A stretch of DNA of 64,000 nt from a virus: IMG/VR virus record IMGVR_UViG_3300034175_000017, positions 1-64,000 of that record. One strand, given 5' to 3'. The notes under the pieces were generated by a model. It had not been told where the DNA came from. It searched no databases and worked only from the letters and a program-made list of their open reading frames with translations. A program made the translations under genes and the position numbers. This document shows, one piece after another, positions 8,077 through 43,708 of this stretch. Position 1 is the stretch's first letter. Every line of letters starts with the position of its first letter.

Positions 8077-8421
8077 ATGAGCACATATTATGACAAGAAC
8101 CGAGAGATTCGCCTCAAGTATTCCAACGAATACTACCTTCGCACCCGTGACACGAGACGCCCCAACCGTCTCCTTACTGAGGCAAAGAAACGAGCCAAGG
8201 CGTCTGGCCTACCCTTTGACCTAACAATAGATGACATCGTGATCCCAACGATGTGCCCGGTCCTAAATAAGCCAATGGTGTCCGCTAGTTTGGATCGCAA
8301 AGACAACGACAAGGGTTACGTCAAAGGGAACGTATTTGTAATTTCTTTGGAAGCCAATCAGAAGAAGCGGGATTCAAGCATTGCTGACCTTGAAGCAATC
8401 CTTGCATATATGAAATCCTAA
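8077..8421 (+). CDS. HNH endonuclease of the endonuclease VII type (114 aa)
   Basis: The C-terminal half has the pattern of phage recombination endonuclease VII-like HNH nucleases: a cysteine in CPVLN, then SLDRKDNDKGYVKGN, then VFVISLEANQKKRD. The N-terminal half is basic (RLLTEAKKRAKASG). Such nucleases cut DNA with a divalent metal; small solitary versions are often mobile homing-type genes inserted in phage genomes. It has one rather than two CxxC-type zinc pairs. It stands first in the fibre block, after a long noncoding gap, which fits an inserted gene. Role uncertain. Confidence 0.75.
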   Translation: MSTYYDKNREIRLKYSNEYYLRTRDTRRPNRLLTEAKKRAKASGLPFDLTIDDIVIPTMCPVLNKPMVSASLDRKDNDKGYVKGNVFVISLEANQKKRDSSIADLEAILAYMKS

Positions 8422-8477
8422 CAACCGCTACATCCATGCCCTTGACAACACGCTGCCCCACAGCCATTCAGCATGGC

Positions 8478-8774
8478 ATGACCCAATCCTTCTCCATCTA
8501 CCAAGGTGACACCTTCCTCGCAGACGCCGTGTATCGGACAGCAGAGGGCGTGCCCATTCCCATCACCCCCGGCCTAATCTCAGCATCCCTCAAGACGCGA
8601 GACGACCGGCACATGCCGATCCAAGTCATACTTGGCGAAGCTGTTGGAACCTATCAGTTGAAAGCAGACACAGAGAACTGGCCCCTCGGTCGAAACTTCT
8701 TGGTTGTCCGATATACGTCTGAGGGTATTGTGCGAACCGCCGAAATGGTTCAGGTAAACGTGGAAGATGCGTAA
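8478..8774 (+). CDS. Small virion-type protein next to fibres (98 aa)
   Basis: About 98 residues from the ATG at 8478 (MTQSFSIYQGDTFLADAVY). The N-terminus, an alternating strand with IYQGDTF, resembles the short beta-sandwich proteins that phages place near tail fibres and baseplates. An earlier ATG at 8436 is possible but gives an unnatural N-terminus. It overlaps the collagen-like gene by one base (TAATG). Exact role unknown; probably structural. Confidence 0.6.
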   Translation: MTQSFSIYQGDTFLADAVYRTAEGVPIPITPGLISASLKTRDDRHMPIQVILGEAVGTYQLKADTENWPLGRNFLVVRYTSEGIVRTAEMVQVNVEDA

Positions 8775-8990: not shown

Positions 8991-9503
8991 ATGGCTACCC
9001 TTCAGACCCGCCTTCAAGACCTCGCAACTGCGATTGGCACACAGATCAAGACCATCAAGACGACCGAAGGTCAGCTTACCGCGTTGACGACCGATGCGAA
9101 GACCAGCCTTGTCGCCGCGATCAACGAACTTCAGGCAGAGATCAATGCTGCTGTCGCCGCTTCCGGTGCCACCATCAACGACGCTGCTACGGTATCGACC
9201 ACGCAGACTTACTCGATCACGAAGATTCGTGACCTTGTTTCGACCAGCATTGCAGTTCTGACAACCGGCGCTCCTGCCGCGATGGATACGCTGGACGAAC
9301 TGTCGGCTGCTTTGGGTGATGATGCAAACTTCGCAGCCACCATCACGACTGCTCTGGCCAACCGTGTTCGCTTCGACGCCGTTCAGACCTTGACCGCCCC
9401 ACAGAAGGCACAGGCTAAGGCGAACATCGACGCATACGGCTCGCTGGAACTCGGCAACCCCGACACAGACTTGGTGGCCGTCCTTACTACCGCGATGGCG
9501 TAA
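8991..9503 (+). CDS. Tail fibre component (170 aa)
   Basis: One hundred and seventy residues, alanine- and threonine-rich, helical N-terminal half (LQDLATAIGTQIKTIKTT), then LDELSAALGDDANFAATITT and a LTAPQKAQAKANIDAYG stretch. These last two motifs recur in many phage tail-fibre proteins, usually just before the tip. It begins two bases after the collagen-like gene and leads directly into the large fibre. Confidence 0.75.
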   Translation: MATLQTRLQDLATAIGTQIKTIKTTEGQLTALTTDAKTSLVAAINELQAEINAAVAASGATINDAATVSTTQTYSITKIRDLVSTSIAVLTTGAPAAMDTLDELSAALGDDANFAATITTALANRVRFDAVQTLTAPQKAQAKANIDAYGSLELGNPDTDLVAVLTTAMA

Positions 9504-9506
9504 CAC

Positions 9507-12500
9507 ATGACGCTTCAGGGTCGCCTTGAAGCGTTTGCGACTGCCGTTGGAGCCAAGTTTAAGGCTATAACTCCACGTTTGCAGCCCGCAGGCGGCACAA
9601 TTGGCCAAGTATTGGCCAAAAATAGTGCAACTGACTTCGATTTTGGGTTCATTACACCCGGAACTGTGCGTTCTGTGGTGCTAACTCAGCCGATTTCGGG
9701 CTTTACGATCACCAATTCGGGCGCTTCCCAATCAACCAACGCCTCTTCGACGTTCGCTTTGGCCGACGATTTGGCTGCTGTTGAGGGTCTTTCGACCCTT
9801 GGTTTCGTCAAGCGCAGTGCCACAAACACTTGGACAACGCAGTCGGCTATCGCTTTGGGCGACCTTGGGACCATCCCCGCCCTCACAATCCTTGGTAACA
9901 TAGGTGGAAGTGCCGCTTCTCCTGCTGCGCTGACTCCAACTGAGGTCACTTCGCTGCTCGATATCTTCACGGCGGGCAAGAAGGGCCTTGTTCCACCCGC
10001 ACCTGCTGTTCCTTCGGGTCTGTTTCTGACCGACTACGGGACTTGGGTCGCTGCGCCCACTGGATCGGGCGGTCCTTCCACTCCAAGCGAGCCGACCTCT
10101 GCTCCTCAGCCGATTGAGTGGGTTCCTGTAACTGCAATAGGGACGGGATCACCACAAACGATCAACCTGACCGCAGCCCTTGCTGCTGACCAAATCTTTG
10201 TCTATGTCCAAGGTCTTCTTCTCGACCCGACCACCGAATACACGGTGAGTGGGGCTGTTCTAACGCTGACTGCGGGCCTTGGTGATATGATTACAGTTCG
10301 GTATCTTAGCTCTACCGCACCTGTTGTGAGCAACGACACGACGCCGAATGCGTTCTCCTTTACTGATGCACCCGGTGTAGCTCTTGGTGCCGTCCAGACT
10401 TCCAACACGATCACTGTTGCTGGTCTTGGTATTGGCATCCCAACTGCTGTGAACATCAGCAACGGCACCTATTCTAAGAATGGTGGCACCTATACCAACG
10501 CTTCGACTTCGGCTGTGAACGGCGACACCTTCTCGGTGCGTCACACGTCATCCGCGCAGAACAGCACGGCGGTCAACACGATCCTCACTATTGGTGGTGT
10601 CAGCGATACGTTCACCTCGACCACCTCTGCGGCTGCTGTGGATGCCACCCCGAACCAGTTTGCGTTCACTGATGTGACCAACGTGGTCGCTAGTTCTGTG
10701 CAGACCTCGAATACTATCACGATCAGCGGCATGACGGCTGGTGCAAGTGCGGCAGTCACGATCACCAACGGCACCTACTCCAAGAACGGTGGAGCCTACA
10801 CTGGTGCTGCTGGAACTGCCTCTGTTGGTGACACCTTCTCGGTGCGTCACACTGCTTCTGCGGCAGGCACGGCCAACACTGACACGACGCTGACCATCGG
10901 CGGTATCAGCGACACTTTTACCTCGACCACTGCTGCTGCTGCACAGGCTGGTGTCCCCGGCATCATCATGAGCAGCGACGTGGAAATGGATCACGACGAC
11001 CTTGCAATGTTTGGTGTCTGCGTTGGCATGCACCAGCGCAATCAGGTCAACATCCTTGCATGGGTCGCTGACTGTCGCGTTCCTACCGGGTCGGCTGCGC
11101 TTCGCGGCGTTCTCAACTATTCCGGCCTGAACCACATCCCTGTTGGGCAGTGGAAGGGCAATACGGGCGGCACCGGCACGACGTGGGCGAATGAAGTCGC
11201 TACGATGACCGGCACTGGCGATCTTCGCATGGCCGACTTCCCTGATGCTGTTGCTGTGACTCGCACGGCCATCATTAACGCGCCAACCAACAACAACATC
11301 ATCATTTCGGGCGGTTCGGCCAGTGTTATCGCTGGTTTCTTGCAGACCCCCGGCGATGCTGCCGATCCTCGCACCGGCCTTCAGCTTGCAATCGACAAGG
11401 TTACTCGCATTGGCTACATGGGCGGCGAGATGGGCACGACCACCAACGAGTATAACTACGGTCACGATATGGCTGCTGCTGAGTATATGCTCAACAACTG
11501 CCCTGTGCCTCTCTTCTTGGTCAGCGGTTCCGAGACCGGCAACATCGTTTCGGGTCCTGCTCAAAGCCAAGACCCCGCGCTCGACCCATATCGTGCAGGC
11601 TTCTTGGCCACGAAGGTCAATCCGGGCGGCGCGTTTATGACCGCTACCGACAAGCGTGCGTCGTATGACCCGACTACGCTGCATTACGCGGTGGTGGGCA
11701 ACTCCACTGGTGCATATGCGTATGTGCGAGGCACGCAGGCCCGCAACCCCGGCACCAACGGTGGTATCTGGACGCCTAGCCCAACTGGTCCTCACTATCA
11801 CCTCGACGTGGTGGCTTCGCTCGCCTCTGTGGGCGCTGTGCTGGATGATCTAATCGCGGAAGCCTACGTTGCACCCTACGTCTTGCCTGCCCCAACTGGT
11901 TTGGTAGCGACTGACGTTCAGAGCACTTCGTTCAAGATCAACATGGCCGAGCTTTCGGGTGCCACGTCCTACGAGTCGTCGGTGAACGGCGGCGCTTGGA
12001 CTGCATTGCCTCGTTCGCGCCTCATCGGTGGCCTTCAGCCTTCGACTGCCAACACAATTAAGCTGCGCGGCATCCGCCCCGGTGCAGTTGGCACGGCCAG
12101 TGCGGACATCACTGTGACGACCACTGCTGCTGCTGCTTTGTGGTCGCCTGATGAGTTGCTCGCGTCCAAGAAGATTGCTCGCTACCGGATGGAAGCTGAT
12201 GCGGCCACCATCGCAGGCGGCACGGCCTCACAGGTCAATGACTTGTGGGGAACTCGTCACATGTTGCAGGCAAACACGGCTTTGCAGCCTGTTGCCACGA
12301 ACACCGCATTCAACGGTGAAGCTCCGGGCTTCTCGGCCAGCAGTGACGAGATGGTTGCAGCCAACGCCTTGATGGGCCTGACCAACAACGTGTTCGTCTT
12401 CATATTGCTGCGTTACAAGGGCGGCAACACCAACGATGGTCGCGTGGTCTCAATGGCTCGCGCTGGCAGCGCAGACTGGGATAACGGCATCATTCCAATG

Positions 12501-12905
12501 TCGATCCGCGCAAACGGTACTTGGTGGGGTTCGTTCTTCGGAGCCAGTTCTGCTGACGGCACCACGCCTCAGACGCCTATTATCGTTTCCTCGTATCTCG
12601 ACAACCTCACCGTCGCCAAGCGCGTCAATGGGTTGCAGATCAGCACGGCCACTGTAACCGCTCGCAATCTGGCGAACACCGCTCGTCTCGGCATCTTCGA
12701 CAACGTGCAGGACGTGGGCACGCAAGAGCCTGCACAGGTCGAGATGGCGGAACTCATCATCTGCAAGGACCTGACGATAGCCGAGGTCGAGAAAATCGAG
12801 GGCTACCTTGCATGGCGTTCGCGTGGCACTGGCAACATCAAGTATAACTCGTTGCTCAACGTCAACCATCCTTACAAGGTGGCCTATCCGCCTGCCGGGT
12901 CTTAA
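9507..12905 (+). CDS. Large tail fibre with nucleoside-hydrolase-like domain (1132 aa)
   Basis: Modular protein. Residues 1-270: fibre-type N-terminus (LEAFATAVGAKFKAI; GTIGQVLAKNSATDF). Residues about 275-480: two near-identical beta repeats of roughly 103 residues (each with GTYSKNGG and GDTFSVRHT). Residues about 481-790: a nucleoside-hydrolase-like domain with the acidic metal-binding motif SDVEMDHDDLAMFG, an IGYMGGEMG stretch and NYGHDMAAAEYML. Residues about 790-870: fibronectin-III-like. Residues about 875-1110: lectin/LamG-like jelly-roll, usual for host-binding tips. The enzyme family cleaves N-glycosidic bonds of ribonucleosides; on a fibre it may act on, or merely bind, a surface sugar. 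The motif looks intact, activity is not proven. Confidence 0.8.
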   Translation: MTLQGRLEAFATAVGAKFKAITPRLQPAGGTIGQVLAKNSATDFDFGFITPGTVRSVVLTQPISGFTITNSGASQSTNASSTFALADDLAAVEGLSTLGFVKRSATNTWTTQSAIALGDLGTIPALTILGNIGGSAASPAALTPTEVTSLLDIFTAGKKGLVPPAPAVPSGLFLTDYGTWVAAPTGSGGPSTPSEPTSAPQPIEWVPVTAIGTGSPQTINLTAALAADQIFVYVQGLLLDPTTEYTVSGAVLTLTAGLGDMITVRYLSSTAPVVSNDTTPNAFSFTDAPGVALGAVQTSNTITVAGLGIGIPTAVNISNGTYSKNGGTYTNASTSAVNGDTFSVRHTSSAQNSTAVNTILTIGGVSDTFTSTTSAAAVDATPNQFAFTDVTNVVASSVQTSNTITISGMTAGASAAVTITNGTYSKNGGAYTGAAGTASVGDTFSVRHTASAAGTANTDTTLTIGGISDTFTSTTAAAAQAGVPGIIMSSDVEMDHDDLAMFGVCVGMHQRNQVNILAWVADCRVPTGSAALRGVLNYSGLNHIPVGQWKGNTGGTGTTWANEVATMTGTGDLRMADFPDAVAVTRTAIINAPTNNNIIISGGSASVIAGFLQTPGDAADPRTGLQLAIDKVTRIGYMGGEMGTTTNEYNYGHDMAAAEYMLNNCPVPLFLVSGSETGNIVSGPAQSQDPALDPYRAGFLATKVNPGGAFMTATDKRASYDPTTLHYAVVGNSTGAYAYVRGTQARNPGTNGGIWTPSPTGPHYHLDVVASLASVGAVLDDLIAEAYVAPYVLPAPTGLVATDVQSTSFKINMAELSGATSYESSVNGGAWTALPRSRLIGGLQPSTANTIKLRGIRPGAVGTASADITVTTTAAAALWSPDELLASKKIARYRMEADAATIAGGTASQVNDLWGTRHMLQANTALQPVATNTAFNGEAPGFSASSDEMVAANALMGLTNNVFVFILLRYKGGNTNDGRVVSMARAGSADWDNGIIPMSIRANGTWWGSFFGASSADGTTPQTPIIVSSYLDNLTVAKRVNGLQISTATVTARNLANTARLGIFDNVQDVGTQEPAQVEMAELIICKDLTIAEVEKIEGYLAWRSRGTGNIKYNSLLNVNHPYKVAYPPAGS
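10324..10947 (+). repeat. Tandem beta-domain repeat inside the fibre gene
   Basis: Two consecutive units of about 310 bases encode matching domains: each starts TPN-F-FTD, contains VQTSNTIT, then GTYSKNGG-YT, GDTFSVRHT and TIGG-SDTFTSTT. They probably lengthen the stalk. Confidence 0.7.
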
Positions 12906-12908
12906 TCC

Positions 12909-14192
12909 ATGAACATTAAGCCGTATCAGATTACGATGAGCGTAGGTGGTGTGCTTGGTCAAACAGCAGCCGGAAATGCACGCCCTCTCACGGCGGCTGA
13001 ACTGACAAACTTCTCGAACACGTTCACGACCACGCTTAAGGGCCTCGTCCCTGCACCGGGCACGTCTACCGGCATGGTGCTCTACGACAATGGAACTTGG
13101 GGTGGCCTGCCTGCTCTTGCGAACGACAGCGTTACCAATCTCAAGCTGGCACAGATGCCCACGCTGACGTTGAAGGGCAATGCCACTGGTGCTCTTGCAA
13201 ATGCGAGCGATCTTACCGTTGCTCAAGTCAATGCGATCCTTCCTGTGTTCACGCAAACGCTCCGTGGTCTTGTCCCACCACCCGGCACAGTAACCGGCAA
13301 GGTGCTGTCAGATAACGGCACTTGGATCACGCCTTCGGGCGGCGGTGGATCGACTGATCCTCTCTGGCTTCCGACTGAATACGTCACTACCAACCCGGCT
13401 AACCCTGCCAGCGGTGTCGTCCTATTTGCCCTCAAGCGTGGCAATCGACGTATCCCCGGATGGGAAGGCACCGATGGTCGTGTTCAGCGCGTGCAGGCGG
13501 CAATAGGCGGTAACAACGTCTATTGGGATCGTGCGACGTGGGGCGCTGCTACCACTTCGGCTATCGGTGTCGGCTGGACCGGCACCCTCACACTCGTAGC
13601 TGGCCCTACCAGCGGCTACCTGAACTCGCTGCCTCGCGGCACGATGACGATTGCCACTGCTGCTGGTATGCTTGATCGACGGACGGCTGTGAACTTCCTG
13701 AACCGTGAAGCGATTTGGGGCGGCTATCATGTGCATATGCGCTTTGGCACTCCTGCTTTGCCAACTGATGCTAAGGTGTTCTTTGGTCTATCGGGCACTG
13801 CTGCTGGCACGGCTTTCACGAACGTCAATCCTTCAACCTTCCTGAATATCTTTGGTGTCGGCAAGGATCAGACGGACACTGCGCTTTCGGTATTCTCGAA
13901 TGACGGCACAGGTGCGGCGACCAAGACGGCTTTGCCTAACACTGGCTCGTTGACCAACATCGCCAATGCCACCTTTCAAGTCGATATTTACACTGTGCCG
14001 GGGGGCGTGGACATTGGTATTCGTGTGCAACGCTACAACAACGCCGATGGCGCGACGACTGTGGACGAGCTTGTGATTGCTACTGACCTTCCAGTAGCGG
14101 CTACCTATAAAGGCGTTCGCTACTGGATGGCCAATACAACGGCGGTGACGCTCACTTTCGCTTACATCCACACCTACATCGAGACGGACTAA
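12909..14192 (+). CDS. Tail fibre or tailspike-like protein (427 aa)
   Basis: Residues 1-150 hold two copies of a short fibre motif (LKGLVPAPGTSTGMVLYDNG and LRGLVPPPGTVTGKVLSDNG) that also occurs in the preceding fibre. The remaining 280 residues form a beta-rich domain of the kind that caps fibres (IWGGYHVHMRFG; FTNVNPSTFLNIFGVG; a terminal VTLTFAYIHTYIETD). It is the last plus-strand gene of the fibre block and overlaps the convergent primase gene by four bases. A receptor-binding role is likely by position. Confidence 0.75.
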   Translation: MNIKPYQITMSVGGVLGQTAAGNARPLTAAELTNFSNTFTTTLKGLVPAPGTSTGMVLYDNGTWGGLPALANDSVTNLKLAQMPTLTLKGNATGALANASDLTVAQVNAILPVFTQTLRGLVPPPGTVTGKVLSDNGTWITPSGGGGSTDPLWLPTEYVTTNPANPASGVVLFALKRGNRRIPGWEGTDGRVQRVQAAIGGNNVYWDRATWGAATTSAIGVGWTGTLTLVAGPTSGYLNSLPRGTMTIATAAGMLDRRTAVNFLNREAIWGGYHVHMRFGTPALPTDAKVFFGLSGTAAGTAFTNVNPSTFLNIFGVGKDQTDTALSVFSNDGTGAATKTALPNTGSLTNIANATFQVDIYTVPGGVDIGIRVQRYNNADGATTVDELVIATDLPVAATYKGVRYWMANTTAVTLTFAYIHTYIETD

Positions 14193-16675
14193 CTGCCGAA
14201 CGTTGGCTTCTGCGGCAGGAACGCGTTGCTTAAGATCAGCCCGCTAATCTCTTCGCGCTGGATGCCGACACCATCCTGATACGGCACGACAGGGTAGCCC
14301 AACTCTTCGACCATCTGCCGGAACCGCTCGTAGGTCACAGACCAACCCTTCGAGATTTCCTTCATGTAGTAGACGTAGTGATCGAATACGTTGCGAAGGT
14401 CAGCCGTGTCAGTTGGCTTGCCGGGGCGAACCTTGTCACTCGACTGCAAGAATGCTGCAACGCTGTTGTTCGCACGAACGACCTGATTGAGGCGCATCTT
14501 GTGCGACTCTGGCAGGGTGTATTCGTTCTGCGTCTGTAGGCGACGAAGCCCTTGCACAGCCCAAGCAGCGATGGCCTCACGCTCTTCTGCGACCAACACC
14601 TTGAAGTAGTCCACGACACGCTCCGAGTCAGGCACCACGCGGTCGAAGTCGAAGATCAACCAGCGACGGGCGAAACCACCTGACGTATCACGCGAGCGCG
14701 GCAAGTGGTTCGACGCGAACCAGTGTGCGGCAATCGGCTTGAACTCAAAGCCATCACGCCCCTTGAACTCGGTAGGCACTTCCTCGCCGCCGACGATCAT
14801 CTTGAACTTATCGCCTGCGATGACTGCTTCCTCTGGCAACTCGCCGCATAGGTTTAGTGTCTTGCCCACCAGCGCGGAAAGCTGGAAGCGTTCGTTCCAC
14901 AATCCCGGTGGCAGGGACGTGCGGCTGTCCTCAGGCATGATCGCCCGCAAGACTTCCATTGCCTGCGACTTGCCGGTGCGTGGCTTGCCATGCAGCAGGA
15001 ACGCACGCTGGTAGCGAGACGCGATGCCGAACAGCGTGGCGGCGAATGCCTCTTGGAGGGCCATTACGCGCTCGTTGTAGTCAGGCTCGTCACCCCATGC
15101 TTGCTCAAGGAACTCCAACCACTTGTGCGCTTCAGTAGCGCGTTCAGGGATGTAGTTGAACGGCATGGTGAACGTCTTACCATACTTGGGCGAGTGGTCA
15201 TGCAGGGTTAGGCTTGAGTCGAGGAACCCGTTAGCGAAGTTCACGCCTTCCTCAAGCTCCGTGGCAAGGTTGCCGCGAACCATGTTCTCAATGGTCTTCG
15301 TCACCGCCTCGTAGTCGTTGTGCCGACGAACGAGAACATTACCTTTCACGGTCTTGGCGACCATCATGTAAATGTCCTTGCGGTCGATGGCCTTGAAGTG
15401 AGCGCCGTTCCACTGCCAGAACTGACCCTGCGAGTGGATGATGTCACCACCTCGATTGATCTCTTCCACGACCTGACGTGCCACCTCTTCGTGGTCGCCT
15501 GCCTGCTCGTTGTCGTCCCGACGCGCAGCCTTGAACTCGGCCTTCAAGTCAGGACGCGACAGATCAAGACCCTCGCCGGATAGACGCTGGATGTTCTTGA
15601 TGAGCGTGTTGAACTCGAACTCCGAGAAGTTCTCGTCCTTGGCGACTTCGGAAATGAGGGTCTGAATGACCTTCATCCGATACTTGGGATCGTCGTTGGT
15701 GTCCTTGGCGATGTTCTCTTCAAGGTAGTCCCGCGCCCGCGTGATATCCCACTTCTGCTTGTTGTTCTTCTCGATCATCGCGGCAATGCCGGGGTGAGCA
15801 AGGTCAGCTTCGGTGAGACCCACGTCCCAATCGTTCGGCAGGGTCTTGCCTGCCTCAACGTCCTTGAGCAGGAACTCGATCAGCTTGCCGACGCCTTTCG
15901 ACGGGTCCATGTCGTCGCCCGACTTGTTCGCCGTGTAGGTTTCCACCCATGAAGCCATCTGCTGCATCGCGTCGGCCAACGGGAAGCGAAGGTTCTTGTC
16001 GATCCCAAGGACCACGCGTGCGAGGTAGCCAGCGTGACGAACCATCTGAATGTCGCGCTCGCCCTGTGGCACCACGTCCAGCGGGCCGGAACGACCACTC
16101 TGTGCAAGGCTGACACCCTTGAGACCAAGCGCATCGCGCAAGATTTTCTCAATGTCCATCGGCATGACGGGGATTTTGTCGAGCACGTCCCACAGATTGA
16201 CGTTCGACGTGTAGGGTTTCTTCGTGTCAGGGTGGATCGAAGGCGGCATGACCATTTGGTTTCCCTTGCCGAGGAACTCGACAATGGACTGGTTCTCGCT
16301 GTCACGCAGCTTGAAGTTGGGTTGACCCTGCCACTTGAAGATCAGGCCCATGCCCTTCTTGCCGATACGCACCCAAGGGGACGTTGGCAGGGCATCACGA
16401 ATGGTCTTCACCATATCCTGATCTTCGGTGTCGATGTCGATGGCACACAGGCCAGATGCAGGACCGAATGGCAGACCGATGTTGGACTGTGGGTATGTCA
16501 CCAGCCAGTGTCCGCGCACTGCCTCGCTTGGCATCACGTCACCGTATTGGGTCCACTCGTTGAGGATCGGTGCCTTGCCTGCACCCTTGCTGGTGCTGTC
16601 AAATCGCTTGAGCGGGATTACAGGAATCCCGGCGTCCCAATAGAGGGCCGCGTTGTCTTGAAAAATATTGGACAT
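14189..16675 (-). CDS. Bifunctional primase-polymerase / helicase (828 aa)
   Basis: The N-terminal domain (to about residue 200) has the PrimPol signature: AGIPVIPLKRF, then CAIDIDTED with the catalytic acidic pair (Asp80, Asp82) and a serine-x-histidine (PPSIHPD). The C-terminal half is a superfamily-3 (D5/P4-type) helicase with Walker A GKPRTGKS near residue 565, followed by a Walker B-like CGELPEE region and ASNHLPRSRD. It would unwind the origin and synthesise primers for the phage replication fork. It is far from the polymerase gene and forms a small minus-strand operon with the next two genes upstream. Confidence 0.85.
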   Translation of the reverse strand: MSNIFQDNAALYWDAGIPVIPLKRFDSTSKGAGKAPILNEWTQYGDVMPSEAVRGHWLVTYPQSNIGLPFGPASGLCAIDIDTEDQDMVKTIRDALPTSPWVRIGKKGMGLIFKWQGQPNFKLRDSENQSIVEFLGKGNQMVMPPSIHPDTKKPYTSNVNLWDVLDKIPVMPMDIEKILRDALGLKGVSLAQSGRSGPLDVVPQGERDIQMVRHAGYLARVVLGIDKNLRFPLADAMQQMASWVETYTANKSGDDMDPSKGVGKLIEFLLKDVEAGKTLPNDWDVGLTEADLAHPGIAAMIEKNNKQKWDITRARDYLEENIAKDTNDDPKYRMKVIQTLISEVAKDENFSEFEFNTLIKNIQRLSGEGLDLSRPDLKAEFKAARRDDNEQAGDHEEVARQVVEEINRGGDIIHSQGQFWQWNGAHFKAIDRKDIYMMVAKTVKGNVLVRRHNDYEAVTKTIENMVRGNLATELEEGVNFANGFLDSSLTLHDHSPKYGKTFTMPFNYIPERATEAHKWLEFLEQAWGDEPDYNERVMALQEAFAATLFGIASRYQRAFLLHGKPRTGKSQAMEVLRAIMPEDSRTSLPPGLWNERFQLSALVGKTLNLCGELPEEAVIAGDKFKMIVGGEEVPTEFKGRDGFEFKPIAAHWFASNHLPRSRDTSGGFARRWLIFDFDRVVPDSERVVDYFKVLVAEEREAIAAWAVQGLRRLQTQNEYTLPESHKMRLNQVVRANNSVAAFLQSSDKVRPGKPTDTADLRNVFDHYVYYMKEISKGWSVTYERFRQMVEELGYPVVPYQDGVGIQREEISGLILSNAFLPQKPTFGS

Positions 16676-38233: not shown

Positions 38234-38251
38234 TCTCGTTAAGGTGTGCGT

Positions 38252-41200
38252 GTGTCGATTCAGGTTTTCAAAGGTGCAAAGGGTGGACAGAGCAGCGGCT
38301 CCGGTAGCAGCTTCGTGCAGACTGCCGACAACCTGCGTTCCGAGGATACGTTTGAAGGACTGATGGGCGTCTGCATCGGCCCTATCAAGGGACCAACGAA
38401 GGGCCTCAAGTCTGTGAAGCTCGACGGCACTGCTGTCCAGAGCGAGAACGGTGAAAGCAACTTCCCCGGCTTCATCACTATTATGTCGGACGGCAACCCT
38501 GCCAACCACCCTGAGAAGCCTATTCTTCGTCTCGGTGCTGGTGCTGCTCCTACGCCTGTCAATCTTGCTCTGACTAACCCACCCAACGGCACGTCGCAGT
38601 GGGTAACGAAGACTGTCAACAACATTGCACCTGACTATATCGACCTGCGTTTCATTGCCAATCAACTGTTCACGCAGAACAAGCAGGGCGTCTATAACGG
38701 CACCGCCAGTATTGAAATTGAAATGAAGCCAACTGGCTCGGCAACATGGGTTAATCCTATGGCCTATGCTGCTGGTGTTCCTGCTGGAACGCAAATGCAG
38801 ACTTCGATTGTTGGGTTGGTCGCTCAAGTTTATTTCAACGACTCCTATAATCAGAATGCTCAGACCGGCTATGCTGCTCAGCGAGCCTTTCAGATCACCG
38901 GCAAGACGGGTAGCCCATCTGTGCATGAGCTTCGCATGTGGGTGCCTTCGACCGGCGCGTATGCGAACCGCACTTGGGACATTCGCTGCCGTCTCGTTGA
39001 GAAAGACAGCGTTGACGCTGATCCGATCTTTGAGAAGCGCAACATCAATTGGGAGTCGGCTGCTGCCGTCTATCAGGATGAGATTGGCGAAGAGGAAGAT
39101 TGGCGCGGCGTCTCTTGGCTTCAGATTTACGGCAAGGCATCGAACCAACTTTCGGGCGTGCCTGACGTTGAGGTCGAGACCGACGCAAAGATCGTCTCTG
39201 TGCCGCCGACTTCGATCTTCAACCCTGAGACCCGCGTCTACAACGCTGGCATTTGGGATGGCTCTTGGGCGAAGGGCTGGACGAACGATCCGGCTTGGGT
39301 CATCAATGACATTATCTCTGACGAACTGAGCGGCATTTCCCTGCTCGCACCCGGCTCGTATCTAAACAAGTGGGATGCGCTGGAAGCGTCCAAGTGGTTC
39401 AGTGAGATGGTGCCTGACGGCAAGGGCGGCGTGCATCCTCGCTACAGCCTCAACGTCGTTGCCAACCAGCAGATGAAGGCCGAAGAGTTTGTTCGCTACA
39501 TGGCGGGCGCTGTAGGCGGCTTTGCGTGGGACGAAGGTGACGGCCAGTGGAGGATGAAGGTCGATAAGCCTGACAATCCCGTTGACCTGTTCACGCTTGA
39601 CAATATCGAAGGTGACTTTGTTTACAGTCACAGCGACGTGGATTCGCGCTTCAACGATTACACCGGCACGTTTCTCAATGCCGAGATGGACTATCAGGAA
39701 GATACGGTTCATCTCTACGACAATAACAGCATTGCGCTGATTGGGCACAAACCATCCAGCATTGCACTGGTGGGCTGCACCAATCGTCAAGAAGCGATGC
39801 GTCGTCTGATGATCCGTCTGCGCTCGTCTGTGAATGAGACACGGCTTGTCAGCTTCACTACGAACCGTCGTGGCCGCAACATCGAACAGCTTTCCACGAT
39901 CCTCGTAGCGGACGGCCACCTTGGCGATCAGGCCAAGCGCACCACTGGTCGCACGATCACTGTGGCTGCTGATCGCATGTCGATCATCGTGCGCGACCCT
40001 TTGCGTCTTGAGCTTAACATTCCCTACAAGCTCAAGTTCGCTTATATGAATCCGCTGTATAATCCTGCGAGCACGACGCAGCCAACGAACTCGGATTGGA
40101 CGAAGCCGACGATTGTTGCAGAGCGCAATGTCACCAACAACTTCGCACAGCGCGGCTCGGTCACGACCATCTATCTTGACGCTGCATTGCCTGCTGGTCT
40201 GCCAGACAACCTCGCCATTGCGCTTGAGGCTGCAACGCTTGTTACCCTGCCGCTGCTGTATCGCGTGACGAACGTAGAATACAGCGACGATGGCGAGCGC
40301 GTGACGATCAGCGCACTGGAAGTGGACACTGGCAAGTGGGCTGCTTCTGATGGCGTGAGCAACGTCAACACTGTCTATCAGACTTTGCGGGGCAACGTGC
40401 CAACCCCGTTGCTACCGCCTGACAACACGCTGCTGCGCGTCATGGTGACGGAAGCTGTGCAGGGTCAGAACGTCAGCCTCACCGCCAACTGGCAGCGTCC
40501 TTCAGGCGCACAGGTCAGCGGCTTCCGCGTCACCTACTCGGTGAATGGTGGCGTTGAGCAAGTGCTCACTGAGAAGACCACGCTGACAAGTGCTGACTTA
40601 GTGAACCCACCTGATGGCACCTATATCTTCAATGTTTATACGATCAATCGTAGTGGTGCGCGTTCTGCGCCCCTAGTTGGCACGGCTGTTGTCGATGCCA
40701 ATACGATTACTGCGGCTCAGGTCTTCTACTCGGGTGGCCAGCAGACGCTTGAAGACTTGCGTCCTGCTACGCCGGGTGCCACACGTAACAATCCACGCGG
40801 CGCATGGGCCAGCAATACTGACTACTTTGTGGGCGACATCTTCAGCCACCAAGGTGTGAGCTACATGGTTACTGCGGACCACAGGTCTACTGGAACTGTG
40901 CCGACCTTTGAGAAGATCGTTCTCTTTGTGGATCGCGGTGCTCCGGGTCTGAATACTGCGACGGTCTATCTGTATCAGCGCAAGGCTACTACGCCTGATC
41001 TACCAACAACTGCTGCGACCTACACGTTTTCGTCGGGTGTTCTTACCGGACACAACAACGGTTGGGTGCGAACAATCCCCACCACCAATGGTCTGCCGTT
41101 GTGGGTTACTGTCGCGTCAGCAAGCAACGACACGAACTCTGACATCATCCAGCCAAACGAGTGGGCTGGTGCCACGATTCTTGCACAGGATGGTCCTCCC

Positions 41201-43708
41201 GGCACTGGCAGCGAAGGCCCCGCTGGTCTCAACGTGGCGACGGTGTTCTTGTATAGGCGTTCGCCTGTTACAACTGTGCCGACGAAGCCGACAACGAATC
41301 TGACTTTTACGTTCGCTACGGGTCTGCTGTCTGGCGATCTTCAGGGCTGGCAGCAGACTGTTCCAACCAACGACGGCAACCTGCTTTACGTCACCACTGT
41401 TACCGCCTCGTCAGCAGACCCCACAGACGTTATTCCGGGGGCCGAGTGGGCTGCGCCTACTGTCATGGCCCAAAACGGTGCTGGTGGCTCACAGGGCTTG
41501 AACAACGCCATTGTCTACATCTACCAGCGTGCGACCAATGCTCCTACCTTGCCAACGTTAGGCGTGACCTACACGTTCTCGTCGGGTGTTGTGGCCAATC
41601 TCAACAACGGTTGGCAGGCTACCATTCCAAACGACAACGGCTTGCCGTTGTGGGTTGCTGTCGCCACGGCAAGCAACGTCAATACGACAGACACCATTGC
41701 TGCGACTGAGTGGACGGCTCCACAGATTTTGGTCGCCAGTGCCAGCGGTAGTCAGGGGCCATCGGGTATCAGCGTTGCGACTGTGTTCCTCTACAAGCGT
41801 GCCGCTTCGATCCCAACCAAGCCAACTTTGAACACGACCCTCACGTTCCAAACCGGCGTGCTGTCTGGCGATCTTCAGGGCTGGACGCAAGCTGTGCCCA
41901 CAGTCAACGCGGCTAACGATCCCCTGTATGTGACCACGGCCACTGCTGCTGCTGCTGCTGCGACGGACACGATCGCTCCTACCGAGTGGGCCACTCCTAC
42001 GGTCATGGCATCGAATGGTTTGAATGGCTCTGTCATCAAGCTGACGGCTGACCAGCAGGCGTTCCTTTTCTTGGACAACGTGGCTGTCAATCCTAACCAG
42101 CTAATCACGCTGACGGCTACGCCGCAGAATGCCAGCGAGACTATAACGTGGACGGTCTCGCCCAACGTGACGCTCAATGGAACGGGCAACACTCGCACGC
42201 TTTCGCTCGCCAACTTCGGCGGCAACCTGCAAGTGACGGTGACTGCCAAAGGAAACCTCACCAACATCACAGATACGTTCACGATCATTCGCACCGACAG
42301 GTCTACGGCTGCTGCTGGTGCAGACGTTACCTCGCTCAACACCGCGCTTGGTGACGGCAATCGCGTGCGCTTCTCCTTAATGGAGGGCGGCACTAACGGT
42401 TGGGCACCTTTGCTCGCTGTCGCTAACAATGTTTATTTTGACAAGCAAGTAATAGATGGTCGTGCTTTTATCGTAGGCACGACTCGCTTTGGTGCTGCTG
42501 GAACTGAAACAGCTAGTATCGGAACTAAGTTAGCGGTAGCACCAATTCCTGTTCGTCCTTTTGAACGTCTTAGTGTTTCAGCTTACATTGGCATTGATGC
42601 ACAAGGTCAAAATCGTGCTTGGAACTTTGTGATTTGGTGGGTTGATGCCAACGGTAACGGCATAACCAATACTTCAATTGCAAGTGGAACCGGAGGCACT
42701 CCTCTACTTTACAAGCCAGCAGCCTTTGTAAACGTGCCTGCCAATGCTTATTATGCTTGGCTTGAAGTCTATGCTGGTGCAGGCGGTGGCCCTGCTGGCG
42801 ACATGATTACCTACATCGGTGAACCAATGGTGACGACTGCTGGTTCGTCTCAGACTGTGCATCCTAACTTCACGCCGGGTCCCGGCAACGAGATGGGTGC
42901 TGACGTTACCGCGAACTCGCAGGTGACTTCAGAATACACGGTTACAACTGTAACGCTCAATGCCAATAGCAGCGGTGTTCTTGACGCGGGTCAGTTTCCT
43001 GTCACGTTGGCTCTGCCTAAGGTGCTCAAAGGCGGTCAGTTAGTGACGACCAGCGGGGATACTACCTACGCTATTTCCGGCCAGACTCCCGCTTTATCCG
43101 GTATCTCTGTTGACAACGGCGCTGGCAGTCCATCGAAGGGCCAAGTCACTCTTCCTAACACTGTGACAGGCAGCGGCAGCTTCACGCTGAACATTTACTA
43201 CAAGGGCACGCTTGTTTCGGCTCACCCTGTAGCTGTAGCTAAACAGAACGCGGTTTATGTGCCGCCACCTGTTACTCCTCCTCCCACAGGTGGAACAGGA
43301 TCAGGCGCTGCTGTCTATATGCCGACGAACGTAACGGCAGTAGCGGGAACACCGGCTGTCACTGCGGCTGCTCCTGTCTATGTGGGTTCGGGCAAGACGT
43401 TGGTGTGCAACTTGAGTGCTCAATATTCCTGCTTCGGTATCACTAGGTCCACGCGTCTTGTGGCGAAGTTCCAGTATTCTCCTGCGGGAGCCAATAGCTG
43501 GACGGACATTGGGCCATATGCCACCGGAAGTGTTACCTCTACGGATCAAGAAGGAAACCTAAATGACTATGGTGAGCTAACTATGGTTCAATCGGTCGCG
43601 CCTGCTGCGGGAAACTATGACGTTCGCCTCAATTTCTACAAAGCCTTGACCGCGAATGCGCTTCGCCTAGAACCAAACTCCGATGGTTATGCGAATGGTA
43701 ATGGCTAA
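38252..43708 (+). CDS. Tail tip / host specificity protein J-like (1818 aa)
   Basis: The N-terminal 600 residues match lambda gpJ (FVQTADNLRSEDTFEGLMGV near the start; LQIYGKASNQLSGVPDVEV; NVVANQQMKAEEFVRYMAG). A fibronectin-III-like domain follows near residues 730-810, then four related 90-residue repeats (about 900-1256), a bacterial-Ig-like domain (about 1258-1360), a low-GC module (about 1380-1530) and a beta-rich C-terminus preceded by PPPVTPPPTGGTGSG. The protein forms the trimeric tip that contacts the receptor. GTG at 38252 has AAGG seven bases upstream; a GTG at 38246 is the alternative. Confidence 0.85.
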   Translation: MSIQVFKGAKGGQSSGSGSSFVQTADNLRSEDTFEGLMGVCIGPIKGPTKGLKSVKLDGTAVQSENGESNFPGFITIMSDGNPANHPEKPILRLGAGAAPTPVNLALTNPPNGTSQWVTKTVNNIAPDYIDLRFIANQLFTQNKQGVYNGTASIEIEMKPTGSATWVNPMAYAAGVPAGTQMQTSIVGLVAQVYFNDSYNQNAQTGYAAQRAFQITGKTGSPSVHELRMWVPSTGAYANRTWDIRCRLVEKDSVDADPIFEKRNINWESAAAVYQDEIGEEEDWRGVSWLQIYGKASNQLSGVPDVEVETDAKIVSVPPTSIFNPETRVYNAGIWDGSWAKGWTNDPAWVINDIISDELSGISLLAPGSYLNKWDALEASKWFSEMVPDGKGGVHPRYSLNVVANQQMKAEEFVRYMAGAVGGFAWDEGDGQWRMKVDKPDNPVDLFTLDNIEGDFVYSHSDVDSRFNDYTGTFLNAEMDYQEDTVHLYDNNSIALIGHKPSSIALVGCTNRQEAMRRLMIRLRSSVNETRLVSFTTNRRGRNIEQLSTILVADGHLGDQAKRTTGRTITVAADRMSIIVRDPLRLELNIPYKLKFAYMNPLYNPASTTQPTNSDWTKPTIVAERNVTNNFAQRGSVTTIYLDAALPAGLPDNLAIALEAATLVTLPLLYRVTNVEYSDDGERVTISALEVDTGKWAASDGVSNVNTVYQTLRGNVPTPLLPPDNTLLRVMVTEAVQGQNVSLTANWQRPSGAQVSGFRVTYSVNGGVEQVLTEKTTLTSADLVNPPDGTYIFNVYTINRSGARSAPLVGTAVVDANTITAAQVFYSGGQQTLEDLRPATPGATRNNPRGAWASNTDYFVGDIFSHQGVSYMVTADHRSTGTVPTFEKIVLFVDRGAPGLNTATVYLYQRKATTPDLPTTAATYTFSSGVLTGHNNGWVRTIPTTNGLPLWVTVASASNDTNSDIIQPNEWAGATILAQDGPPGTGSEGPAGLNVATVFLYRRSPVTTVPTKPTTNLTFTFATGLLSGDLQGWQQTVPTNDGNLLYVTTVTASSADPTDVIPGAEWAAPTVMAQNGAGGSQGLNNAIVYIYQRATNAPTLPTLGVTYTFSSGVVANLNNGWQATIPNDNGLPLWVAVATASNVNTTDTIAATEWTAPQILVASASGSQGPSGISVATVFLYKRAASIPTKPTLNTTLTFQTGVLSGDLQGWTQAVPTVNAANDPLYVTTATAAAAAATDTIAPTEWATPTVMASNGLNGSVIKLTADQQAFLFLDNVAVNPNQLITLTATPQNASETITWTVSPNVTLNGTGNTRTLSLANFGGNLQVTVTAKGNLTNITDTFTIIRTDRSTAAAGADVTSLNTALGDGNRVRFSLMEGGTNGWAPLLAVANNVYFDKQVIDGRAFIVGTTRFGAAGTETASIGTKLAVAPIPVRPFERLSVSAYIGIDAQGQNRAWNFVIWWVDANGNGITNTSIASGTGGTPLLYKPAAFVNVPANAYYAWLEVYAGAGGGPAGDMITYIGEPMVTTAGSSQTVHPNFTPGPGNEMGADVTANSQVTSEYTVTTVTLNANSSGVLDAGQFPVTLALPKVLKGGQLVTTSGDTTYAISGQTPALSGISVDNGAGSPSKGQVTLPNTVTGSGSFTLNIYYKGTLVSAHPVAVAKQNAVYVPPPVTPPPTGGTGSGAAVYMPTNVTAVAGTPAVTAAAPVYVGSGKTLVCNLSAQYSCFGITRSTRLVAKFQYSPAGANSWTDIGPYATGSVTSTDQEGNLNDYGELTMVQSVAPAAGNYDVRLNFYKALTANALRLEPNSDGYANGNG
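40949..42020 (+). repeat. Four tandem ~270-base repeats in the J-like gene
   Basis: Units begin near 40949, 41228, 41499 and 41768. Each encodes a V-L/I-Y-x-R start, a TFSSGV- or TF-TGLLSGDLQGW-type core and a final EW-A-P. Units 1 and 3 are of one type (NNGW, NGLPLWV) and units 2 and 4 of another (GDLQGW, LYVTT), giving an A-B-A-B order. Confidence 0.75.

What the first reader, a model, noticed from the sequence alone, without database searches (positions are those of the whole stretch)
9507..12905. Nucleoside-hydrolase-like enzyme domain inside a tail fibre
A domain of about 300 residues with SDVEMDHDDLAMFG, IGYMGGEMG and NYGHDMAAAEYML lies between stalk repeats and a FN3-lectin tip. Nucleoside hydrolases normally are free metabolic enzymes. 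Displayed on a fibre it may cleave or bind a glycosidic surface receptor, an unusual depolymerase class.
Basis: partly seen in the sequence, partly recalled or inferred. Interest (0 to 1): 0.7.

Follow-up and report, generated by a model that had tools for sequence, protein, structure and literature searches.

The report
Nucleoside-hydrolase domain in phage fibre protein
A virus of bacteria carries, inside one of its attachment-fibre proteins, a domain from a family of sugar-bond-cutting enzymes normally found as free metabolic proteins, and two unrelated phages turn out to have done the same, suggesting a previously undescribed way for phages to recognise or trim sugars on their hosts.

Summary
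ORF 9507-12905 (+, 1132 aa) is a fibre-type protein. Residues 484-785 match a nucleoside-hydrolase (NH) profile built without this sequence (E=6e-25). An AlphaFold2 model (pLDDT 80.9, pTM 0.85) has NHs as all 50 best listed PDB matches. The acidic metal/ribose site is kept (D491, D497, D498, E648, N650, D721); the first Asp of the DxDxxxDD motif is Ser489. No Pfam, PHROG, NCBIfam or PDB sequence search hits the domain directly, so ordinary annotation misses it.

It is not unique. A temperate-phage contig (IMGVR_UViG_3300049027_000038) has an NH domain in a DUF2793 tail fibre after the tail-tip gene. A Rhizobium rhizoryzae phage-plasmid has an NH + laminin-G protein at the end of its tail operon, 29% identical to the window domain. 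In the contig the metal Asp is lost, so activity is not universal. The nearest cellular relatives are mostly exported lipoproteins.

Best reading: a virion-borne NH-fold module that engages, and probably trims, a terminal furanosyl group on the host surface; more likely an exo-acting receptor modifier than a chain-cutting depolymerase. Activity and substrate are untested. No paper found describes this. Tail or head location is unsettled.

The parts
9507..12905 (+). Fibre-type protein, 1132 aa, carrying the NH domain
   Evidence: ORF; PHROG short tail fibre match to the stalk (phrog_4924, 3.6e-6); tblastn of the stalk to Synechococcus phage S-SCSM1 short tail fibre
9507..9638 (+). N-terminal segment (aa 1-44) shared with Caulobacter phage CcrSC gp126 and viral contigs L089/L090
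   Evidence: 50% identity to gp126 over 44 aa; phrog_22680
9981..10046 (+). KGLVP...L.DYGTW repeat (aa 159-180), also found twice in the next fibre gene
   Evidence: pattern scan
10335..10607 (+). Stalk repeat 1 (aa 277-367)
   Evidence: 59% identical to repeat 2
10641..10913 (+). Stalk repeat 2 (aa 379-469)
10956..11861 (+). Nucleoside-hydrolase-superfamily domain (aa 484-785)
   Evidence: independent HMM E=6e-25; AlphaFold2 model; Foldseek PDB hits all NHs
10971..11000 (+). SSDVEMDHDD metal/ribose motif: S489 (replaces first Asp), D491, D495, D497, D498
   Evidence: alignment A2 and residue check
11448..11456 (+). EYN motif E648/N650 (EFN in NHs; E166/N168 in C. fasciculata numbering, from memory)
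   Evidence: invariant columns in A2
11664..11669 (+). Y720-D721: the C-terminal metal Asp (D242 equivalent) is kept; the His241 position is Tyr here and mostly Trp in the closest relatives
   Evidence: alignment A2; PDB profile alignment
11892..12146 (+). FN3-like segment (about aa 796-880)
   Evidence: by eye; weak match to phrog_4971 (E=0.005)
12147..12902 (+). C-terminal tip, possibly ConA/laminin-G-like
   Evidence: short motif shared with the L196 ArabFuran-catal tip; otherwise unconfirmed
8991..9503 (+). Small fibre-cassette protein (phrog_4757), homologue of CcrSC gp125
   Evidence: E=5e-43; 50% to gp125; 16 viral loci
12909..14192 (+). Second fibre gene of the cassette, same KGLVP...GTW repeats, no NH domain

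Best explanation
The ORF is a modular virion fibre. A short attachment N-terminus and a repeat stalk present a domain of the nucleoside-hydrolase superfamily, followed by an FN3-like linker and a tip. The domain descends from NHs that work outside the cytoplasm. It keeps the acidic Ca2+/ribose site apart from one Asp-to-Ser change. The fold, the residues, the fibre-like context and the recurrence are shown here. The mechanism is inferred: the phage uses the domain as an exo-acting glycosidase or binding module that engages a terminal (ribo)furanosyl group on a host surface glycan and probably hydrolyses it, as an adsorption step. The pocket geometry fits trimming a residue better than cutting a polysaccharide chain.
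For: Independent HMM E=6e-25. Model pLDDT 80.9/pTM 0.85, with all 50 listed PDB matches being NHs, best 8e-13. D491, D497, D498, E648, N650, D654 and D721 are invariant across 29 sequences. A profile links the group to solved NHs: 8qnd 1.2e-7, RihA 1.7e-7, Leishmania NH 4e-7. A second phage has an NH domain (HMM 3e-48) in a DUF2793 + ArabFuran-catal fibre after a Phage-tail_3 gene. A third, the R. rhizoryzae phage-plasmid, has PF01156 1.5e-19 + Laminin_G_3 5e-13 and clusters with the window domain, 98/96 support (29% identity). 26 of 31 Bacteroidota relatives carry a lipobox; one is fused to a GH101 glycosidase domain.
Against: The first Asp of DxDxxxDD is Ser489 here, and the window domain sits on a very long branch, so it may be inactive. 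The L194 copy has lost the metal Asp (D to G) and the catalytic Asn. No substrate, host or structure is known. The Bacteroidota contexts examined point to ribose or nucleoside salvage (ribokinase and ADP-ribosylglycohydrolase neighbours; an ADP-ribosylglycohydrolase fusion), not polysaccharide digestion.
Confidence: 0.5

Rival explanations
1. The NH fold has been recruited as a non-catalytic lectin: it binds a pentofuranosyl-containing receptor or merely spaces the tip, and catalysis is lost or irrelevant.
For: Ser489 replaces the first motif Asp here. The L194 phage copy lost the D242-equivalent and the catalytic Asn while keeping the fold signature. The window domain has the longest branch of the tree.
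Against: The window and Rhizobium copies keep the other metal and ribose residues despite only 25-29% identity. That selective conservation is what catalysis or metal-dependent binding would predict.
Confidence: 0.33
2. The domain is a true nucleoside, NAD or ADP-ribose hydrolase acting on extracellular small molecules or nucleotide-decorated surface groups, for example to clear decoys or feed ribose, rather than on a glycan receptor.
For: NH ancestry. The Parabacteroides relative sits with ribokinase and ADP-ribosylglycohydrolase. The best PDB matches include XopQ with bound ADP-ribose.
Against: A virion-attached enzyme in a few copies is a poor way to process soluble metabolites. The domain lies between stalk repeats and a tip, where phages place receptor-active domains.
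Confidence: 0.12
3. The protein is not a fibre, or not on the virion: it is an accessory secreted or cytoplasmic enzyme.
For: The cassette lies outside the tail operon of this phage, upstream of the primase. No virion proteomics exists.
Against: Stalk repeats match a phage short tail fibre. It shares a KGLVP...GTW repeat with the next gene. The preceding gene is a PHROG family matching many tail proteins. In two other phages the NH domain lies at the end of tail operons.
Confidence: 0.05

Closest known systems
Inosine-uridine-preferring nucleoside hydrolases (PF01156): C. fasciculata IU-NH 1mas/2mas, E. coli RihA 3g5i, L. reuteri RihC 8qnd
   Same: Fold, DxD...DD acidic cluster, E-x-N motif and C-terminal metal Asp
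   Different: 12-18% identity. Two residues are inserted inside the acidic motif, the first Asp is Ser, and Tyr sits where the canonical His is. It is one domain of a 1132-aa phage fibre; PF01156 itself does not score on it
Exported Bacteroidota/Gemmatimonadota NH subfamily (e.g. Parabacteroides distasonis WP_005858071.1)
   Same: The same extended motif D-x-D-x-G-x-D-x-DD; nearest cellular relatives, 22-29% identity over about 290 aa
   Different: Free, mostly lipobox-bearing exported enzymes, one seen in a ribose-salvage operon
Rhizobium rhizoryzae phage-plasmid protein WP_165137779.1 (NZ_CP049252)
   Same: NH domain in a phage structural region; the window's closest phage relative; sister in the tree
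   Different: NH is N-terminal with a confirmed Laminin_G_3 tip and no stalk; all site residues kept, PF01156 above cut-off
Known phage tailspike depolymerases (endosialidase, rhamnosidase, levanase, hyaluronidase, pectate lyase) and LPS deacetylases (PMC5380687)
   Same: Carbohydrate-active domain displayed on a virion fibre
   Different: Those described are mainly beta-helix depolymerases; that review contains no word beginning with 'nucleosid' or 'ribofuranos'

Membership tests
Nucleoside hydrolase superfamily (PF01156) | NH alpha/beta fold | tested here: met
   Model pLDDT 80.9; Foldseek PDB top hits all NHs, E down to 8e-13
Nucleoside hydrolase superfamily (PF01156) | Sequence score above the Pfam gathering cut-off | tested here: not met
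   No PF01156 hit to the window domain; reached only through intermediates
Nucleoside hydrolase superfamily (PF01156) | N-terminal DxDxxxDD Ca2+ motif | tested here: inconclusive
   SSDVEMDHDD: second Asp and the DD pair kept, first Asp is Ser, two residues inserted; the insertion is shared with the subfamily
Nucleoside hydrolase superfamily (PF01156) | E-x-N motif and C-terminal metal Asp | tested here: met
   E648, N650 and D721 invariant in A2
Nucleoside hydrolase superfamily (PF01156) | Hydrolysis of N-ribosidic bonds | not testable with these tools
   needs purified protein
Phage fibre / receptor-binding protein | Fibre-like modular architecture shared with known fibres | tested here: met
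   Stalk match to a phage short tail fibre, duplicated stalk repeat, shared repeats with the neighbouring gene
Phage fibre / receptor-binding protein | Present on the virion, on the tail | tested here: inconclusive
   The cassette lies away from the tail operon; its start resembles CcrSC gp125-126 near the major capsid gene, so a head fibre is possible
Polysaccharide depolymerase | Cleavage of host surface polysaccharide | not testable with these tools
   no assay; a pocket-type site argues for exo action (inference)

The most novel reading that the evidence does not exclude
Phages have repeatedly captured exported nucleoside-hydrolase-fold glycosidases as virion receptor-processing domains: a new enzyme class on fibres that trims terminal furanosyl (ribosyl-type) groups from bacterial surface glycans, with some lineages decaying to pure lectins.
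Probability: 0.4. Interest if true: 0.75.

Novelty: new variant of a known kind. Interest (0 to 1): 0.56.

Why it matters
Phage fibres are the main source of enzymes that strip bacterial capsules and O-antigens, and the known folds are few. An NH-fold domain on fibres of three unrelated phages adds a carbohydrate-active fold not described there in the papers searched. It would point to furanosyl or ribosyl groups as phage receptors. Standard annotation does not detect the window domain, and where such a domain is detected (Rhizobium) it is labelled a plain metabolic 'nucleoside hydrolase', so more cases may be hidden. The culturable Rhizobium phage-plasmid makes the idea testable.

Tried and rejected
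Direct Pfam, NCBIfam, PHROG and PDB-sequence searches of the domain found nothing relevant. Three viral-contig scans from the NH domain alone or its alignments and one from the whole fibre found no relative. A pattern scan on the window's own acidic motif (D-h-E-x-D-x-DD) gave 61 loci with no NH. A scan for the canonical DTDPGxDDA motif gave 0 viral contigs. The pattern D-x-D-h-G-x-D-x-DD found the second phage. Caulobacter phage Seuss gp53/gp60 'nucleoside hydrolases' (PMC4591317) do not match the NH profile and look like P-loop proteins, so they are misnamed; the similar label in Acinetobacter phage TCUP2199 (PMC9228384) was not checked. NH hits in public 'phage' records are one Salmonella genome contig and 11 records without annotation, the three opened being marked UNVERIFIED; treated as probable host DNA. 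A single-sequence fold of the tip failed (pLDDT 33).

Full report
WHAT IS THERE. The window is the first 64 kb of an 81,356-base virus record. Its terminase is 41-43% identical to those of Pseudoalteromonas phage KB12-38, Caulobacter phage Seuss and Achromobacter phage JWF. It is therefore an approximately 80-kb siphophage of that loose group, infecting an unknown host. ORF 9507-12905 (+) encodes 1132 aa in a small cassette: an ORF that looks like an HNH nuclease by eye (8077-8421), an unknown ORF (8436-8774), a phrog_4757 protein (8991-9503), the finding, and a second fibre gene (12909-14192). The cassette lies upstream of a primase (14189-16675, minus) and the terminase, away from the tail operon.

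THE DOMAIN. No library hits the domain directly. The link came from tblastn to an annotated nucleoside hydrolase on a Parabacteroides plasmid: 26% over 86% of the query, E=5e-4; pairwise E=1e-17. That protein is a PF01156 member, 8.6e-15. A genome scan gave 80 Bacteroidota relatives. A profile from 28 of them, excluding the window, hits this ORF at E=6e-25 (aa 484-785); the next frame in the window is at E=1.6, and 1000 shuffles reach at most 6 bits against 88. The match is not chance. The profile of the whole group reaches solved NHs, about 1e-7 for the best.

STRUCTURE AND SITE. The AlphaFold2 model (29-sequence alignment; pLDDT 80.9, pTM 0.85) matches nucleoside hydrolases in all 50 listed PDB hits: XopQ/XOO4466, plant, trypanosomatid and bacterial enzymes. 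Among predicted viral proteins only giant-virus NHs match well; no phage protein does. D491, D495, D497, D498, E648, N650, D654 and D721 are invariant in the alignment. The first Asp of the DxDxxxDD motif is Ser489. Tyr720 stands where canonical NHs have the His that protonates the leaving base (role from general knowledge); the nearest relatives mostly have Trp there. The numbering and roles of C. fasciculata IU-NH residues (D10, D14, D15, E166, N168, H241, D242) are from memory, not tested here.

NOT UNIQUE. A pattern search found IMGVR_UViG_3300049027_000038 (38 kb): a 903-aa protein with DUF2793 (tail-fibre N-terminal module), an NH domain (HMM 3e-48), tail-fibre modules and an ArabFuran-catal-type tip. 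It directly follows DUF2460, Gp84-type, NlpC/P60 and Phage-tail_3/Rcc01698 tail-tip genes, with an integrase-like frame nearby. Its site is partly broken: EFN became EHD and the metal Asp became Gly. A third case is on the Rhizobium rhizoryzae DSM 29514 'plasmid unnamed5'. This is plainly a phage-plasmid (terminase, portal, protease, capsid, tail tube, endolysin, ParA/ParB). WP_165137779.1 there is NH (1.5e-19, above cut-off) + Laminin_G_3 (5e-13), the last gene before the endolysin, with an intact site. Window and Rhizobium domains are 29% identical over 202 aa and sister in a tree (98/96), with a Gemmatirosa NH (signal-peptide-like start) next (98/94); L194 falls elsewhere. Long branches make the tree tentative. 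The fibre N-termini and stalks of the three are different, so the module has moved between, or been acquired by, unrelated phages.

ORIGIN AND MECHANISM. 26 of 31 checked Bacteroidota relatives have a lipobox, so the nearest cellular enzymes mostly work outside the cytoplasm. One is fused to a GH101 glycosidase domain, one to ADP-ribosylglycohydrolase with a weak CE2_N match, and one to GDPD. One sits with ribokinase and a sugar transporter. The simplest account is capture of an exported furanosyl hydrolase into a fibre. NH pockets enclose a single terminal ribosyl (general knowledge), so I infer exo-trimming or binding of a terminal furanosyl group, not chain depolymerisation. Shown: fold, residues, fibre-like modular context, recurrence. 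Inferred: catalysis, substrate, role in adsorption.

TAIL OR HEAD. The first 44 residues and the preceding gene match Caulobacter phage CcrSC gp126/gp125, which lie close to the capsid genes of a phiCbK-like phage. phiCbK-type phages have a head filament as well as a tail fibre (PMC3556154). A head fibre therefore cannot be excluded for the window protein.

LITERATURE. Searches for nucleoside hydrolase with phage plus tail fiber, depolymerase or receptor-binding protein return only two genome papers of related phages. In Seuss the label is a misannotation of P-loop-type proteins; the label in TCUP2199 was not checked. A review of virion-associated carbohydrate enzymes has no occurrence of words beginning 'nucleosid' or 'ribofuranos'. 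The library holds open-licence papers only.

LIMITS. The tip domain is unresolved. Prophages outside Bacteroidota could not be surveyed. No activity is shown. The unusual Ser489 and the long branch leave a substantial chance that the window domain is a binding module only.

Noticed in passing
window 8077-8421 (+): 114-aa ORF beside the fibre cassette that looks like an HNH endonuclease by eye (CPVLNKP...SLDRKDNDKGYVKGNVFVIS); 41% to an ORF in viral contig L086, no Pfam hit. It may mobilise the cassette.
   Followed up: partly
window 38246-43708 (+): The J-like tail-tip protein carries a CBM_5_12 carbohydrate-binding module at aa 853-882 (1.8e-5, just under the Pfam cut-off).
   Followed up: no
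NZ_CP049252.1 (L199): Rhizobium rhizoryzae DSM 29514 'plasmid unnamed5' is a 41-kb phage-plasmid with full capsid and tail genes, filed as a plasmid.
   Followed up: yes
KT001914 gp53 and gp60 (L100): Seuss genes named 'nucleoside hydrolase' do not match the NH profile; by sequence gp53 looks like a P-loop kinase and gp60 (Walker A GPNEAGKS) like an SMC/SbcC-type ATPase, a misannotation that confuses literature searches.
   Followed up: yes
L196:3800-6511 (-): Fibre of contig IMGVR_UViG_3300049027_000038 combines an NH-like domain and an alpha-L-arabinofuranosidase B-type domain in one protein.
   Followed up: partly
public phage records OR845292, OR851504, OR849863, OR846590, OR847566: Unannotated 'phage' records (some only 1.7-4 kb) containing bacterial-type nucleoside hydrolases; the two of these opened are marked UNVERIFIED, probably host DNA contamination.
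   Followed up: partly
L007:3941-6298, L010:1679-4207, L035:3923-5749: Bacteroidota lipoproteins fuse the exported NH subfamily to GH101, ADP-ribosylglycohydrolase (with a weak CE2_N match), or GDPD domains.
   Followed up: no
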